From the NCBI GenBank assembly GCA_013112715.1, contig JABFGB010000001.1, positions 124,001 through 188,000 on the forward strand: a DNA stretch of 64,000 nucleotides. Direction: 5' to 3'. The translations under genes and the position numbers were made by a program. Below are positions 54,860-61,983 of this stretch, one piece after another (the first letter of the stretch is position 1; every line of letters starts with the position of its first letter). Under the pieces are notes generated by a model. That model saw only the letters and a list, made by a program, of their open reading frames with translations. It made no database searches and was not told the origin of the DNA. The DNA comes from Chloroflexota bacterium (GTDB lineage Bacteria > Chloroflexota > Anaerolineae > Aggregatilineales > J027).

Positions 54860-55408
54860 TTAGAGTTCGTCTCGGTAGCCAAGACAGCGTTTTGCTTCGG
54901 CGGGTGCGCCTTGCCGAAGCCACGTTACACAACCTTCGCCTTCGATTGTTGGGTTTATCCATACAATATGCTCAAGGTCATCAAGCACTTGGGCCACATT
55001 CATCAAATGCTGCCTAACCCGATTATCACATGAGGCAATTGTGAAATCTGCTGCCAAAGCTGCCTCAATCAGCCGAATATCTTTCATAATGATTTTGAGA
55101 ATGGCCTCATCGGTGACGGTTTCCTCAATTGCCTGCCGCAAATCCTCGTTTAGCACATCCTCAGCCTTGCGATGAATGATTTTCCCGCGTCGTGCCATAT
55201 TGACGCGCCAAGTTGAAACATAGCGTGATTGATGTTTGTCCCATTCCACAGTAATTTCAGGCGTCAAAATCATGCTGTGGCATAATTTCAACACTTCAAG
55301 TAAAAACTCCCGGCAGAGTTTTGAATCAGGATGCAGCTTTTCTGTTCCACCAGCGGCCCGTGCAACCGAGGCATCAATGACCAACCGTTTTCGATTTTTG
55401 ACGGTCAC
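54860..55408 (-). CDS. PIN-like domain protein
   Basis: A 182-residue protein. An early aspartate in LVIDASVARAAGG, a glutamate in MILTPEITVEW and later acidic residues in EAALAADFTIASCDNRVRQ fit a PIN-like metal-dependent ribonuclease. It starts with GTG at 55408, 1 nt after the ATPase stop, with GGAG 7 nt upstream, so the two are translationally coupled. The pair may be a nuclease-ATPase conflict module; this is inference. Confidence 0.65.
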   Translation of the reverse strand: MTVKNRKRLVIDASVARAAGGTEKLHPDSKLCREFLLEVLKLCHSMILTPEITVEWDKHQSRYVSTWRVNMARRGKIIHRKAEDVLNEDLRQAIEETVTDEAILKIIMKDIRLIEAALAADFTIASCDNRVRQHLMNVAQVLDDLEHIVWINPTIEGEGCVTWLRQGAPAEAKRCLGYRDEL

Positions 55409-55409
55409 A

Positions 55410-56750
55410 CTAATTCTCCGGTTGGTGTGCTTCCGCCGCGTCCATAAAATGACTTTGGGCCGTTAGGGTGGTTTCGCCAAAATCTTCGGGCCAGTCGCCA
55501 TAACTCCCAGTTTCATCCAAATCCCGGCTTGAAATGGTGGTTGCACCATCATCCCCGCGTGAGAACCAGTGCAATTTCACTTTTTCGGGCGCTAGCTTGC
55601 CCTCGGCAACCAATGTCTGCACACCGAGCAGCAACAAGTCACTGTGGGTTTCAGCAACTACCCGAACCCCCCGATTAGCAGCGTCGGCTAAAACTTGGGC
55701 AAGGGCGACTTGAGCACGGGGATGTAAGTGAATTTCGGGCTGTTCCAAATAAACCAATTGGCCCGGCTCGGCTGCCAACAATGCAACCAGTACAGGCAAA
55801 ACTTGGGACACCCCAAAACCGACATCGGCAATACTGACCATATCTCGTGGGCCACCCTTTGCGCCAAGTGGCAGTCGTCCAACCTGCAATTCGACTTGGG
55901 TATCATCAATACGTTTGGCACTGACTCTATTGGTTAAACCCAGTATTTCCAACAGGCTGCCTAATTTATCAAGCCTGTTGTCTTGGTCAATTTGCCATCG
56001 GCTGATAATACTAGCAACATATGGCTCAAACGTACCGGGAAACATTGGCCCAGTCGCTGCTGTCGTTTTATAGGTCCGCTCTGGATTACCTCTTAAACCC
56101 GGCACATGAATAACTAAACGAATACATTCTTCTAGAGGTGTCTCTGGCATGGGAGAAATAGTGAAAATTTTGTCACCTTTGTCATTCACTAGCTCCAGTT
56201 TGAAAAAGCATCTCTCTTGAGCAACATGCCAACTGAGAATGTTCTCAAAACCTCTCCTACGGTAAAACATATCAGCATTAATAACATATGAAATGGGCTG
56301 TTGTGAAATTTCATCGGAAGTTAAGTCGGGCTTCAAGGGCATAAATCGCGGTTTATCTGGGTTATCTGGGTTGACTTCCTCATAAATCGTTTCTATCAGT
56401 TCTATTTCTCTTCTTTGAACATTTTTAGGGAAACGAAACAGGTTTGAAATGTTTTTATTCTGCTCAAGCTCAATCCAAAACTCAATATTACCGAAATTGG
56501 ATCTGCCAGATTTCCAAATTAGTTGTCGAACACCTGTAAATCGCACATTGGGGCCGTTAATTAGCAACGCGCCGGGGTCATATGTCGCCTCAAGGGTCTG
56601 TTTCAGCAACAACAATGGTTGTATAATACTTGACTTACCAGAACTATTCGCCCCTGCTAAAATCGTCAATGGGCGTATTTCAATCCGCGATTCATCCCGC
56701 AGTGATTTAAAATTCGTTGCCCCTAGTGCCGTAATGCCCTGCTCGGTCAT
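55410..56750 (-). CDS. AAA ATPase, DUF3696/OLD-like
   Basis: A 446-residue SMC/ABC-type ATPase. Walker A is LAGANSSGKSSIIQPLLLLK, the middle helical insert follows, and the Walker B region is YLEQPEIHLHPRAQVALA with the D-loop and H-switch ETHSDLLLL. The C-terminal extension fits DUF3696 ATPases. No TOPRIM nuclease is fused, so nuclease activity would come from the coupled PIN-like protein. The ATG at 56750 has GAGGA 7 nt before it. Confidence 0.8.
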   Translation of the reverse strand: MTEQGITALGATNFKSLRDESRIEIRPLTILAGANSSGKSSIIQPLLLLKQTLEATYDPGALLINGPNVRFTGVRQLIWKSGRSNFGNIEFWIELEQNKNISNLFRFPKNVQRREIELIETIYEEVNPDNPDKPRFMPLKPDLTSDEISQQPISYVINADMFYRRRGFENILSWHVAQERCFFKLELVNDKGDKIFTISPMPETPLEECIRLVIHVPGLRGNPERTYKTTAATGPMFPGTFEPYVASIISRWQIDQDNRLDKLGSLLEILGLTNRVSAKRIDDTQVELQVGRLPLGAKGGPRDMVSIADVGFGVSQVLPVLVALLAAEPGQLVYLEQPEIHLHPRAQVALAQVLADAANRGVRVVAETHSDLLLLGVQTLVAEGKLAPEKVKLHWFSRGDDGATTISSRDLDETGSYGDWPEDFGETTLTAQSHFMDAAEAHQPEN

Positions 56751-56873
56751 ATCCAATTCCTCACCAAAATTGCATACCAAGCCTGAGAGTAAAACAATCC
56801 GCCTGATTTGGCAACTATGACCGCGAATTGCCACCTCTTGGCTGACAGCCGCATCGCCCTTTACACGATGGGG

Positions 56874-57775: not shown

Positions 57776-58285
57776 ATGGCGATTTATTATATTGGCTTTC
57801 CGGTTCTCATGATCGTGGCCGTCATAGATGCGACCTTTATGCAGTTATTTCGGTTGTGGGGTGGGGCACCCAGCCTGATGTTGATGGTAATTGTCTCGTG
57901 GGCACTAGTGGCCGATCTCGAAGATGCGCTTCCTTGGGCAGTCATTGGTGGCGTGATGCGCGATCTGCTATCCATCACGCCAACAGGCAGTTCCGCTGTG
58001 GCCTTTGTGCTGATCGTGATTGCGATTGACCGCATTTTTCCCAAACTCAATTGGCACAACATCGCCATTCCTCCCCCCACCGTTTTGGTGGCAAGTTATG
58101 TCTATGGTCTGATGAGTTTTGGTTTTCACCGACTGGCGGGTTGGGATGTGCCTTTTTTGAACGGCTTGTGGTACATCATCCTACCCGGCGCAGTGATGAA
58201 CTTTGCCGGGATTTTAATTGTCTTTCGGCTGATTGGCGGGATCAATAATTTCCTACGTCCACAGCGCGGCTCGATGTTGCGATAG
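57776..58285 (+). CDS. mreD: rod-shape-determining protein MreD
   Basis: A 169-residue membrane protein with five or so hydrophobic segments (the pattern GGVMRDLLSITPTGSSAVAF is typical of MreD). It starts 3 bp after the mreC stop and precedes mrdA, from which it is parted by the IsrB element. Confidence 0.82.
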   Translation: MAIYYIGFPVLMIVAVIDATFMQLFRLWGGAPSLMLMVIVSWALVADLEDALPWAVIGGVMRDLLSITPTGSSAVAFVLIVIAIDRIFPKLNWHNIAIPPPTVLVASYVYGLMSFGFHRLAGWDVPFLNGLWYIILPGAVMNFAGILIVFRLIGGINNFLRPQRGSMLR

Positions 58286-58289
58286 ACAA

Positions 58290-58543
58290 AAAATGGTTGG
58301 GGGCTAAAGTGAGGTAGTGGTGTCAACAACCCGATGCCTAAAGGCAGGGGCTTGTGGTGAGCGAAGACCAATCGGCAACCCACAACGCAAGTGTTGACTA
58401 GCCAGTCAGTAACTAGCCGTCTGAGCGTGGTAGCTCACAACAGAGGGCGGATGCCTCCCTAGTCTGCCTTTCCTGTGACGGTCAGTGGCGAAGGGATCAG
58501 TTGTTTTGTCTGTAGAGACGTTAAATACTGTAAGGAGTCCTAA
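58290..58543 (+). ncRNA. candidate omega RNA of the IsrB element
   Basis: The 258 bp between mreD and isrB hold no gene but much potential structure: GTCAACA/TGTTGAC (58322-58328 with 58392-58398), TGCC/GGCA in the end hairpin, TTGTGG/CCACAA around 58352-58386, GACT/AGTC at 58396-58407, TGAGC/GCTCA (58422-58426 with 58433-58437) and a hairpin near 58443-58460. Known IscB and IsrB omega RNAs lie in this position and have about this length, with the guide at the 5' end read from the flank. The exact ends are not known. Confidence 0.6.
58330..58350. repeat. left-end hairpin of the IsrB element
   Basis: CCC (58330-58332) pairs with GGG, and TGCC (58335-58338) with GGCA (58343-58346), loop TAAA and a 2-nt bulge. 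The same design occurs at the right end. Confidence 0.6.
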
Positions 58544-59587
58544 ATGTCCCAACAATTTGTCCCAGTGGTAGGTAGTACAGGAAAACCCCTGATGCCCACG
58601 ACCCACAAGCGAGCCAACAAACTCATTGCCAAAGGACGAGCCGTGCGGCGTTTTGATCGAGGTTTGTTCTACATCAAATTGCTTGACCGTGAGGAGGGTT
58701 ACACCCAACCGATTGCTGTCGGGATTGACCCCGGTTCCAAGAAAGAGGCGCTGACGGTCAAATCAGCCTCCCATACCTACCTCAATATCCAAGCCGATGC
58801 CGTAACTTGGGTCAAAGAGGTTGAGCAAACCAGTACCCAGATGCGGCGTTCACGGCGTAATCGCAAGACCCGGTATCGTGCCTGTCGTCCTAATCGTCGG
58901 CAAGGGCAGTTTCAACTCCCTTCTAGCACCCGCGCACGTTGGGGCTGGAAGTTGCGCTTGTGTCGTTGGTTAGCCCGCTATTATCCCATTCAAGTGTTTG
59001 TGGTGGAGAACATTAAAGCCACGACCAAACAAGGCCAACGTCGCTGGAACAGCAGTTTTTCGCCGCTGGAAGTGGGCAAGCAGTGGTTCTATGCTGAACT
59101 GGGGCAAATCGCGGAAGTACAAACCGTGCAAGGCTACGAAACTAAACAACTGCGGGATAAGTTGGGCTTGAAAAAGTCTAAAAACAAAATGTCCGATCAA
59201 TTTGAAGCCCATTGTGTGGATAGTTGGGTTTTGGCAAATTCGGCTGTCGGCGGTCACACTGACGTAGACAATCCCGCCATACTCTGCATCATTCCGCTAC
59301 GCTTCCATCGGCGGCAACTTCATGCCCTCCAATTTGCCAAAGGCGGAGAACGACGTCCTTATGGTGGCACGTTGAGCATGGGCATCAAACGCGGGACATG
59401 GATCAAACATCCCAAGTACGGTCTGTGTTATGTGGGTGGGTCAAACAAGAGCCGTATTAGCCTGCACGATATGGATTCGGGTCAGCGTGTGTGTCAAAAA
59501 GCTAAACCTGAAGACTGCATTATCTTAACCACCGCCAGTTGGCGCATAAAATCAGAAAGGAGTAAGGCGCTTCCTCCCCATGCCTAA
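58544..59587 (+). CDS. isrB: IsrB-type RNA-guided nickase (IscB family without HNH)
   Basis: A 347-residue protein. The PLMP domain opens it (STGKPLMPTTHKRANKLIAK, residues 11-30). RuvC-I is GIDPGSK with D62; the arginine-rich bridge has RRSRRNRKTRYR from 101; RuvC-II is VFVVENIKA with E155; RuvC-III is EAHCVDSWVLA with H223/D226. The 67 residues between II and III contain no CxxC or HNH, which separates IsrB (about 350 residues) from IscB (400-500). The tail (IKRGTWIKHPKYGLCYVGGS) matches the target-side domain of the family. IsrB nicks the non-target DNA strand guided by its omega RNA. AAGGAG precedes the ATG by 6 nt. All catalytic residues are intact. Confidence 0.88.
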   Translation: MSQQFVPVVGSTGKPLMPTTHKRANKLIAKGRAVRRFDRGLFYIKLLDREEGYTQPIAVGIDPGSKKEALTVKSASHTYLNIQADAVTWVKEVEQTSTQMRRSRRNRKTRYRACRPNRRQGQFQLPSSTRARWGWKLRLCRWLARYYPIQVFVVENIKATTKQGQRRWNSSFSPLEVGKQWFYAELGQIAEVQTVQGYETKQLRDKLGLKKSKNKMSDQFEAHCVDSWVLANSAVGGHTDVDNPAILCIIPLRFHRRQLHALQFAKGGERRPYGGTLSMGIKRGTWIKHPKYGLCYVGGSNKSRISLHDMDSGQRVCQKAKPEDCIILTTASWRIKSERSKALPPHA

Positions 59588-59596
59588 ATGCAGGGG
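59576..59596. repeat. right-end hairpin of the IsrB element
   Basis: CCCC (59576-59579), bulged A, TGC (59581-59583) pair with GCA and GGGG (59590-59596); loop CTAAAT. It overlaps the isrB stop codon. Confidence 0.6.
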
Positions 59597-59616
59597 TATC
59601 CACGCCTGAAATTTCG

Positions 59617-61983
59617 ATGAATCGAGTTCTTTTGCCCTTTCAAGGTTGGCGACTGCACTTCTTTCGGGGTGCGGTGGTGGCTATGCTCATTGTGCTCGTG
59701 CTGCGGACATGGCAACTGCAGTTTATTCAAGGGGCCTCCTTCCGGGCCGATGCTGACGAAAATCGTTTCCAGACCCTGCCCCTTGCAGCACCGCGTGGCA
59801 AAATTTATGACCGCAACGGTCAACCATTGGCCCTTAACGACGCCGCCTTTTTGGTCACCGTTACCCCGGCTCTGCTGCCCGACGATCTGGACGAGGTGCT
59901 GCAAATTTACAATCGTCTATCTGCATTGGTAGATGTGCCTGCTACCCGTGCCATTGCTGATGCTTCAGGGCGGGTAGACGAGATTAGTATTGATGAAAAA
60001 GTGCGCGAGGGCGAAGGTATTGCGCCCTTCCGTGCGGTGGTGATTGCTTCCGACGTGGATGAAAATGTGGCCCGTGAAATTTTGGAAAGCCGCCAATCAC
60101 TCCCCGGTGTCGCCGTTGAAGTCCGCTCAGTGCGGCGCTATCCATCCGGCGAAAAAACCTCCCAGATTATCGGTTATCTTGGCCCAATTTCTGAAGAGCA
60201 AGCCCTAGAGCTTATTGAGCTTGGTTATGATCCGGCCTATGACCGCGTAGGGTATGCGGGCATTGAGGCCTATTTTGAGACCGAACTGAAGGGCATCAAT
60301 GGCAGCGAAACCACCGAGATTGATGTGGCAGGTCAGCCGCTCCGCCTTGTAGACCGTACGGCACCACAACCCGGTGTCAGCATCCAACTCACGATTGACC
60401 TTGAACTGCAAGAAGCCGCCCAGCGTTTCCTTGTGGAAGGCATCAACCAACTCAATGCCCGTGAGCGCCGCCTTGTCTCCCAGTCCGGGGTGGTGATTGC
60501 CATGAACCCCAAAACGGGCGAAATTTTGGCGATGGTCTCATGGCCGACCTATGATAACAGCCGTTTCGCCCGCAGCATTGACGCCGAATATTATTTTGAC
60601 CTTGCCGAAAACCCCCTCACGCCATTGGTCAATCACGCCATTGGGTCGCTCTATCCCCCCGGCTCAGTCTGGAAGATGCTGACTTCAGTCGCCGTGCAAG
60701 AAGAAGATGTGATTGACCCAGCAACACCCTTGTTTGACGGTGGCAGCTTGGTCTTACCCAACGCCTACGCTCCCAACGACATCGCACGCGGTCAAACGTT
60801 TGTCTGCTGGCTCGATCAAGGGCATGGCACACAAAATCTGATTGACGCCATAGCCAACAGTTGTGACGTGTATTTTTATCAAGTCGGCGGCGGCAATCCA
60901 GCCGTCAGTGAGGCTACTCTAAAACGGGATGGTCTCGGCGTGGATAATCTCTATCGTTGGGCCACCACCTTTGGCATCGGGTCTGATCTTGGGGTCGAGA
61001 TTTTTGGCGAAACCGCAGGTCGAATGCCGGATCGTGACTGGAAACGCCGTGTTTATGGCGAAAGCTGGTCAACTGGGGACACCTATAACGCGGCCTTTGG
61101 TCAGGGCTATGTCACGCTGACCCCCTTACAGCAGTTGGCAATCATTTCGGCCATCATCAACGATGGGGTGTTTATGCAGCCAACGCTTCTCAAAAATTTC
61201 CAAGACGCCAGCGGCAACATTTTGCAAGAATTTCCTCCACAGGTCATGCGTACCATTGTTCCACCCGCCGACGGGAGTCCGATGATTCTCAATATCCGCG
61301 AAGATATGCTGGTGCAGGGAGCCAATAGTTTGTCATGCCGTTGTGAGTCGGATTCACCCTACTATGCGCCAGAGCGCTGCAATCCCGACACCTATACAGG
61401 CCAATTTGACAGCGACCCCGCCGCCGAAGTTGAGAGTTTTATTCAATATAGAGTCCACGTCCCCTATCAATATCGCTGGAACGCTGGATTGTGCGACCCA
61501 TTGGCAATTCAGGACTGGCAGGGATATACCCCCCCAATAGCCTCTATCGAGAGTTTCCGCATTGCCCAACAAGGGATGCTCGAAGTCGTTACACGCGGGA
61601 CATCCTCGGCAGCAGCCAACCCAGCCGCCCCGCCGTTGGGATATGTGACGGAAGGCGGAAAAACAGGCACGGCGGAATATTGTGACGACATCGCCCGACC
61701 ACAGGGCTTGTGTATTCCCGGACGCTGGCCCTCCCACGCATGGTATGTGGGATACGCCCCCGCTGACGACCCGGAAATCGCCGTCGTCGCTTTTATCTAT
61801 AATGGGGGTGAAGGGTCGCAGAACGCCATGCCGATTGTGCGCCGCGTACTGGATTATTATTTCCGTCGGCCCGCGCCCGAACCTGAGACCGAGACAACCA
61901 CCACCGTTGAACCGACTGACGAAACCGATGCAACAGCCACACCCGAAAGCGCTGCCCCAACGGAGACCCCGGCAGTGCAATAG
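59617..61983 (+). CDS. mrdA: penicillin-binding protein 2, elongation transpeptidase
   Basis: A 788-residue class B PBP, the transpeptidase of the rod complex. It has one N-terminal membrane segment (FFRGAVVAMLIVLVLRTW), the PBP dimer domain (APRGKIYDRNGQPLALND), and the transpeptidase with S350-V-W-K353 in PPGSVWK, the second motif in IANSCDVYFYQVG and K682-T-G in GGKTGTAEY. A Thr/Glu/Pro-rich tail follows. There is a 130-residue insert before the KTG motif containing several cysteines (CRCESDSPYYAPERC). No clear ribosome site precedes the ATG, possibly because the IsrB element inserted 20 bp upstream. Confidence 0.93.
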   Translation: MNRVLLPFQGWRLHFFRGAVVAMLIVLVLRTWQLQFIQGASFRADADENRFQTLPLAAPRGKIYDRNGQPLALNDAAFLVTVTPALLPDDLDEVLQIYNRLSALVDVPATRAIADASGRVDEISIDEKVREGEGIAPFRAVVIASDVDENVAREILESRQSLPGVAVEVRSVRRYPSGEKTSQIIGYLGPISEEQALELIELGYDPAYDRVGYAGIEAYFETELKGINGSETTEIDVAGQPLRLVDRTAPQPGVSIQLTIDLELQEAAQRFLVEGINQLNARERRLVSQSGVVIAMNPKTGEILAMVSWPTYDNSRFARSIDAEYYFDLAENPLTPLVNHAIGSLYPPGSVWKMLTSVAVQEEDVIDPATPLFDGGSLVLPNAYAPNDIARGQTFVCWLDQGHGTQNLIDAIANSCDVYFYQVGGGNPAVSEATLKRDGLGVDNLYRWATTFGIGSDLGVEIFGETAGRMPDRDWKRRVYGESWSTGDTYNAAFGQGYVTLTPLQQLAIISAIINDGVFMQPTLLKNFQDASGNILQEFPPQVMRTIVPPADGSPMILNIREDMLVQGANSLSCRCESDSPYYAPERCNPDTYTGQFDSDPAAEVESFIQYRVHVPYQYRWNAGLCDPLAIQDWQGYTPPIASIESFRIAQQGMLEVVTRGTSSAAANPAAPPLGYVTEGGKTGTAEYCDDIARPQGLCIPGRWPSHAWYVGYAPADDPEIAVVAFIYNGGEGSQNAMPIVRRVLDYYFRRPAPEPETETTTTVEPTDETDATATPESAAPTETPAVQ

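What the first reader, a model, noticed from the sequence alone, without database searches (positions are those of the whole stretch)
58286..59616. IsrB element with candidate omega RNA inserted between mreD and mrdA
Seen: a 347-residue protein with PLMP domain, intact RuvC D62/E155/H223-D226, no HNH, preceded by about 250 nt of structured non-coding DNA and bounded by matching bulged hairpins. Known: IsrB proteins are RNA-guided nickases related to IscB, and their omega RNA is encoded just upstream. Inferred: this copy is functional, and its guide is the host sequence just left of the element. A guide-dependent nickase lodged inside a cell-elongation operon is unusual.
Basis: partly seen in the sequence, partly recalled or inferred. 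Interest (0 to 1): 0.88.

Follow-up and report, generated by a model that had tools for sequence, protein, structure and literature searches.

The report
IsrB element docked on mrdA start
A small mobile element that encodes an RNA-guided DNA-nicking enzyme (IsrB) and its guide RNA sits exactly between the ribosome-binding site and the start codon of a cell-wall gene; the enzyme type is known, but its relatives turn out to share this start-codon habit, which may explain how they spread without harming the host and still get their guide RNA made.

Summary
58544-59587 encodes a 347-aa IsrB (best solved match DtIsrB, E=2.8e-40), preceded by a 222-nt structured RNA that covaries across 21 relatives and matches Rfam HEARO/omega RNA weakly (E=3e-4, below the curated cut-off). 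Empty sites in four congeneric genomes fix the element at 58322-59616 (1,295 nt); 58286-58321 is host DNA. The element lies between the Shine-Dalgarno of mrdA (GAGG) and its ATG. The following ATGA is both start codon plus A and an NTGA target-adjacent motif; the 17 nt left of the element exactly match the empty allele of a sister species. The protein is under purifying selection (dN/dS about 0.1), yet no Y1 TnpA was found in the genome. So: a new member of a known kind. That the operon is special is not supported: other IsrB copies, in Chloroflexota and cyanobacterial plasmids, also sit at the start codon of the next gene (19/29 by a mechanical test against 14% of background ATGA, p=4e-10), often splitting a Shine-Dalgarno from its ATG and carrying a purine-rich motif near their own right end. 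I found no description of that habit in papers I could read, but key papers were not held.

The parts
57776..58285 (+). mreD, host gene upstream
   Evidence: Pfam MreD, NCBIfam TIGR03426 above cut-off
58298..58321 (+). Host leader of mrdA that would form the guide of the omega RNA; the 17 nt next to the element match the empty site of G003 exactly
58311..58314 (+). Native Shine-Dalgarno GAGG of mrdA, now 1.3 kb from its start codon
   Evidence: sequence; conserved next to the ATG in empty sites L040-L043
58322..59616 (+). Whole inserted element, 1295 nt, no target duplication
   Evidence: empty sites in G001-G004; nine more copies of the closest clades start GTCAA-like and end before ATGA, a tenth (decayed) before ATGG
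58322..58543 (+). omega RNA scaffold region; HEARO match covers 58322-58503
   Evidence: Rfam RF02033 31.2 bits, E=3e-4, below gathering 83; covariation
58330..58350 (+). Left-end hairpin, alike to the right-end hairpin
   Evidence: direct repeat D3
58544..59587 (+). isrB, 347 aa, PLMP domain, bridge helix, RuvC, C-terminal beta domain, no HNH
59556..59562 (+). AAAGGAG, candidate substitute Shine-Dalgarno for mrdA at the right end (inferred)
   Evidence: sequence; kept in most copies of the close clades; anti-Shine-Dalgarno duplex -8.2 kcal/mol against -9.1 for the native leader
59565..59607 (+). Right-end hairpin with outer stem AGGCG/CGCCT; leaving it out puts AAAGGAG 11 nt from the ATG; the isrB stop codon (59585-59587) is in its loop
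   Evidence: sequence, RNA fold, other copies
59617..59620 (+). ATGA: mrdA start codon plus A, and at once the NTGA-type target-adjacent motif
   Evidence: DtIsrB motif NTGA in PMC9581776
59617..61983 (+). mrdA (penicillin-binding protein 2), host gene downstream, intact
   Evidence: NCBIfam TIGR03423 E=3.5e-158

Best explanation
This is an IsrB-type OMEGA insertion element of the IS200/IS605 kind, probably non-autonomous here, inserted between the Shine-Dalgarno and the ATG of mrdA. Shown by comparison: its borders, its single-copy status, the covarying RNA, the selected protein, and a match of the adjoining host 17-mer to the empty allele beside ATGA. Inferred: transcription of the mre operon runs through the element and makes one RNA holding the host leader (guide), the omega RNA scaffold and the isrB message. 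[quoted passage not shown] Repair from the occupied copy would restore or spread the element. Landing on ATGA start codons, in the sense orientation, guarantees transcription of the guide and spares the coding sequence; an AAAGGAG bridged by the right-end hairpin, or coupling to the isrB stop codon 29 nt upstream, may keep mrdA translated.
For: DtIsrB is the best solved relative by sequence (E=2.8e-40) and by fold (Foldseek rank 1, E=2.3e-23). Catalytic D62/E155/H223/D226 are invariant and dN/dS is 0.07-0.11 between close intact copies. RNA: HEARO hit begins at the very base found as the border from empty sites; 20 of 31 pairs compensated, shuffles 0/500. Borders and empty sites. Guide match. 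Motif: DtIsrB NTGA and nick 8-11 nt upstream (PMC9581776). Start-codon habit: 19/29 copies against 445/3136 background ATGA, p=3.6e-10; 15/20 against 33% among non-coding ATGA, p=1.7e-4; profile N-termini agree for NifS, GguA-type ATPase, ThyD-type epimerase, prephenate dehydrogenase; two cyanobacterial plasmid copies end at deposited start codons.
Against: No transcript or activity data. Rfam score is far below the gathering cut-off (31.2 against 83). No Y1 transposase in the genome, so current mobility is doubtful. How a nick, rather than a double-strand break, would drive copying is not established for IsrB. Some copies are not at start codons (L008 lies inside a cupin gene; L056, L060/L061, L064, L097 have no clear downstream start). 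The substitute ribosome-binding site is a sequence reading only.
Confidence: 0.85

Rival explanations
1. The element is a dead or domesticated remnant: IsrB and its RNA no longer move but have been kept as a host regulator, for example controlling mrdA translation or binding the mrdA leader.
For: Single copy, no Y1 TnpA in the genome or in G002 and G004; dS between copies (0.72-0.83) exceeds mrdA dS to G001, G003 and G004 (0.33-0.45), so copies are old.
Against: All four same-genus genomes lack the element at this site, so it is not a fixed host function; RuvC catalytic residues are kept, unlike nuclease-dead TnpB-derived regulators; ends and hairpins are intact.
Confidence: 0.12
2. The start-codon position is only the by-product of purifying selection: ATGA insertions inside genes are lost, and start codons are simply the commonest harmless ATGA sites; the element has no means of sparing or replacing the ribosome-binding site.
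For: Start codons make up about one third of non-coding ATGA in these genomes by the crude gene caller.
Against: Observed 15/20 exceeds that third (p=1.7e-4), and the caller misfiled several true starts as genic (L007, L055, L073). Splitting the Shine-Dalgarno from the ATG of mrdA should not be harmless without a replacement. Right ends of separate clades carry GGAG-like motifs in suitable positions.
Confidence: 0.4
3. It is an IscB that lost its HNH domain recently, not a member of the IsrB line.
For: The IscB NCBIfam model matches the N-terminal half.
Against: Score 89 against a cut-off of 175; best solved relative is IsrB, far ahead of any IscB; 20 relatives without HNH from two phyla align end to end, while IscB copies in the same genomes are separate and match only about residues 2-165.
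Confidence: 0.03

Closest known systems
DtIsrB, Desulfovirgula thermocuniculi OMEGA nickase (PDB 8DMB; PMC9581776)
   Same: About 350 aa, PLMP, bridge helix, split RuvC, no HNH, C-terminal domain, upstream omega RNA, NTGA motif
   Different: Only about a third identical over the aligned length; omega RNA here is about 222 nt plus guide rather than about 300 nt; activity not tested
HEARO RNA (Rfam RF02033) and IscB elements
   Same: RNA starts at the element border with GTCAAC-like sequence and shares several helices; IscB copies in G005, G010, G219 and G737 have the same kind of ends and many also sit before start codons
   Different: Scores 31 bits here against 89-134 for IscB copies of G005 and G010; no HNH nuclease
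TnpB/ISDra2 of IS200/IS605 (PMC8612924)
   Same: Guide taken from the flank, motif equal to the insertion target, proposed role in keeping the element at the donor site
   Different: Guide lies on the other side; TnpB cuts both strands; ISDra2 carries TnpA
Phage T4 gene 25 and 38 split ribosome-binding sites (PMC3014915)
   Same: A hairpin between Shine-Dalgarno and AUG cuts the effective spacing (27 to 11 nt for gene 25); here leaving out the hairpin cuts 54 to 11 nt
   Different: Tested in T4, only inferred here

Membership tests
IsrB | N-terminal PLMP domain | tested here: met
   PLMP at residues 15-18; L16, M17, P18 invariant in 20 copies
IsrB | Split RuvC with intact catalytic residues | tested here: met
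   D62, E155, H223, D226 invariant, aligned to DtIsrB
IsrB | No HNH domain | tested here: met
   Only RRXRR in Pfam; 347 aa
IsrB | Arginine-rich bridge helix | tested here: met
   Helix 89-105 in the model, followed by an arginine-rich stretch; R101, R104, R105, R107 invariant
IsrB | C-terminal motif-reading (TI) domain | tested here: inconclusive
   Beta strands 286-336 modelled at moderate confidence; fold match spans the chain
IsrB | omega RNA directly upstream | tested here: met
   Covarying structure and weak HEARO match; transcript not seen
IsrB | NTGA-type motif next to the natural target | tested here: met
   ATGA in all empty sites
IsrB | RNA-guided nicking | not testable with these tools
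   needs biochemistry
Rfam HEARO (RF02033) | Score at or above gathering cut-off | tested here: not met
   31.2 bits against 83; 89-134 bits in IscB controls
IS200/IS605 element | Terminal hairpins, insertion beside a fixed short target, no duplication | tested here: met
IS200/IS605 element | TnpA (Y1 transposase) in the element or genome | tested here: not met
   No PF01797 match in G000; the assembly is 96% complete

The most novel reading that the evidence does not exclude
IsrB and related IscB elements are specialised start-codon residents: their target motif is the start codon plus A, their natural guides are host ribosome-binding sites, host transcription always supplies the guide, and their right end brings a replacement ribosome-binding site (directly or bridged by a hairpin) so that the downstream gene, even an essential one such as mrdA, stays on. 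Guides made of Shine-Dalgarno-like sequence might also help them find new start codons.
Probability: 0.3. Interest if true: 0.7.

Novelty: new member of a known kind. Interest (0 to 1): 0.48.

Why it matters
The locus offers a natural pair of occupied and empty sites with a matching guide, which makes the open question of what a nickase does for a transposon testable. The start-codon habit, if general, explains how these elements are transcribed without a promoter of their own and why they are tolerated, and it gives a simple rule for finding their borders and natural guides in any genome.

Tried and rejected
Viral contigs hold no close relative. A first multiple alignment of flanks mixed strands and was discarded. 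An automatic test of the outer stem of the right end failed because it picked the wrong inner hairpin; the stem claim rests on reading the sequences. The idea that a cell-wall operon is the target was rejected, since other copies precede unrelated genes, although one distant copy (L062) also precedes a penicillin-binding protein gene. Own promoter inside the element: three weak sigma-70-like matches on the + strand in the region scanned, within what shuffles give. Literature searches for a start-codon habit found nothing, but the original HEARO, ISC, OMEGA and IscB retention papers were not held. From memory, unverified, the 2009 HEARO paper noted insertion before ATGA or GTGA, so part of the pattern may be known.

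Full report
Check of the observation. The ORF at 58544-59587 is real and open. Its best solved relative is DtIsrB, E=2.8e-40, ahead of every IscB; Pfam gives RRXRR only and the NCBIfam IscB model matches the front half below its cut-off. An AlphaFold model built on 18 relatives (mean pLDDT 74) has DtIsrB as its first Foldseek match, E=2.3e-23. D62, E155, H223 and D226 are invariant among 20 relatives from Chloroflexota and cyanobacterial plasmids, and dN/dS between the close intact copies is 0.07-0.11.

Borders. The window lies in a 5.55-Mb genome of unnamed species (a same-genus relative, G004, appears to be a Chloroflexi MAG). All four same-genus genomes searched have mreD directly followed by mrdA. 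Reading the occupied site against them gives AGTGGT | GTCAACAACC ... ATTTCG | ATGAATCG, so the element is 58322-59616, 1,295 nt, with no target duplication.

The RNA. No Rfam family reached its gathering score in the window. With relaxed settings HEARO (RF02033) matches 58322-58503 at 31.2 bits, E=3e-4, beginning at exactly the base that the empty sites give as border. IscB copies in G005 and G010 score 89-134 bits in the same kind of search. An alignment of 21 IsrB upstream regions folds into seven helices; 96.8% of cells pair, 20 of 31 pairs show double-sided changes, against 29-36% pairing when partners are slid. So the strand and place of an omega RNA are well supported, while the formal Rfam membership is not met.

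Guide and motif. The 17 nt left of the element (TAAAGTGAGGTAGTGGT) match the empty site of G003 without mismatch and those of G001 and G004 with one mismatch each. The next four bases are ATGA. [quoted passage not shown] by inference the nick here would fall in GAGG, the native Shine-Dalgarno.

Where other copies sit. From G001, G004, G005, G219, G631, G737, G747, G752 and cyanobacterial plasmids I read the ends of about 30 copies. Nearly all start GTCA-like and end immediately before ATGA (one decayed copy, L015, before ATGG). In most, the ATG is the start codon of the next gene, in the same orientation: cysteine desulfurase, sugar ABC ATPase, prephenate dehydrogenase, response regulator, epimerase, lipoprotein, solute-binding protein, penicillin-binding protein and others. 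Profile N-termini start at residue 1-5 for several of them, and two plasmid copies end at start codons annotated by the depositors. A mechanical test on the rejoined flanks (open for 50 or more codons downstream, in-frame stop within 40 codons upstream) is passed by 19 of 29 copies, against 445 of 3,136 ATGA in background stretches of the same genomes, p=3.6e-10. Against ATGA outside genes only, it is 15 of 20 against one third, p=1.7e-4. These p-values treat copies as independent; L060 and L061 share one site. Seventeen of 29 left flanks carry four or more bases of Shine-Dalgarno within 20 nt of the join, against 23% of background ATGA, for example ACGGAGGAATGCT, CGGGAGAATATTTT, GATAGGAGAACAATTCCA. 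IscB copies in G005, G010, G219 and G737 often show the same, by reading only. Exceptions exist: L008 interrupts a cupin gene.

The right end. Insertion takes the native Shine-Dalgarno 1.3 kb away from mrdA. The element's last 60 nt hold AAAGGAG (59556-59562), then a hairpin whose outer stem is AGGCG/CGCCT (59565-59607), then 9 nt and the ATG; leaving out the hairpin the spacing is 11 nt, the value reported for the split site of T4 gene 25 (PMC3014915). Other clades keep the outer stem with different bases (GCCGCA/TGCGGC, GCGGCA/TGCCGC, GGCTTTGTG/CACAAAGCT, CGCCTGT/ACAGGCG, GTGTT/AACAC), and some place AGGAG, GGAG or GGAGG 4-10 nt before the ATG instead. In some G219 copies the AGGAG is itself in the stem, so this reading is tentative. 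Coupling to the isrB stop codon, 29 nt upstream of the ATG, is another way to keep mrdA translated.

Mobility. No Y1 transposase was found in this genome or in G002 and G004; G003 has several but no IsrB copy. Copies within G004 differ as much from each other (dS 0.77) as from the window copy (0.72-0.83), more than mrdA differs between the species (0.33). So the copies are old and the family is maintained by selection on the protein in hosts without an obvious transposase. How it moves here is unexplained.

Verdict. The element is an ordinary IsrB by anatomy and a new member of a known kind. The position in the mre operon is not special in itself; the shared position at start codons is the part worth following.

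Noticed in passing
54860-56834 (-): A pair of minus-strand genes just upstream of mreC: an AAA_21/DUF3696-like ATPase (474 aa) and a 182-aa protein without Pfam match that reads like a PIN-type nuclease; possibly a defence or toxin-antitoxin-like pair.
   Followed up: no
L062 (G747), element end next to locus position 1413: A distant IsrB copy (44% identity) also sits at the start codon of a penicillin-binding protein transpeptidase gene; two such cases may be chance.
   Followed up: partly
L053, L073, L054 (G219): A short recurring insert, roughly GCCAACAGTAGGCGCTTTAGGCGAAG, lies inside some elements (omega RNA hairpin loop, omega RNA 3' end, shortened form near the right end).
   Followed up: no
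G000, G002, G004 against G003, G005: IsrB copies occur in G000 and G004 without a detectable Y1 transposase, while G003 has Y1 transposases but no IsrB copy.
   Followed up: partly
L010, L015/L016, L053, L058: Decaying copies with a stop codon or frameshift; L015 also ends before ATGG instead of ATGA.
   Followed up: partly
L071 (G219): Insertion at an ATGA where the stop codon of what reads like a histidine kinase gene overlaps the start codon of a response regulator gene, so the upstream gene loses its stop.
   Followed up: no
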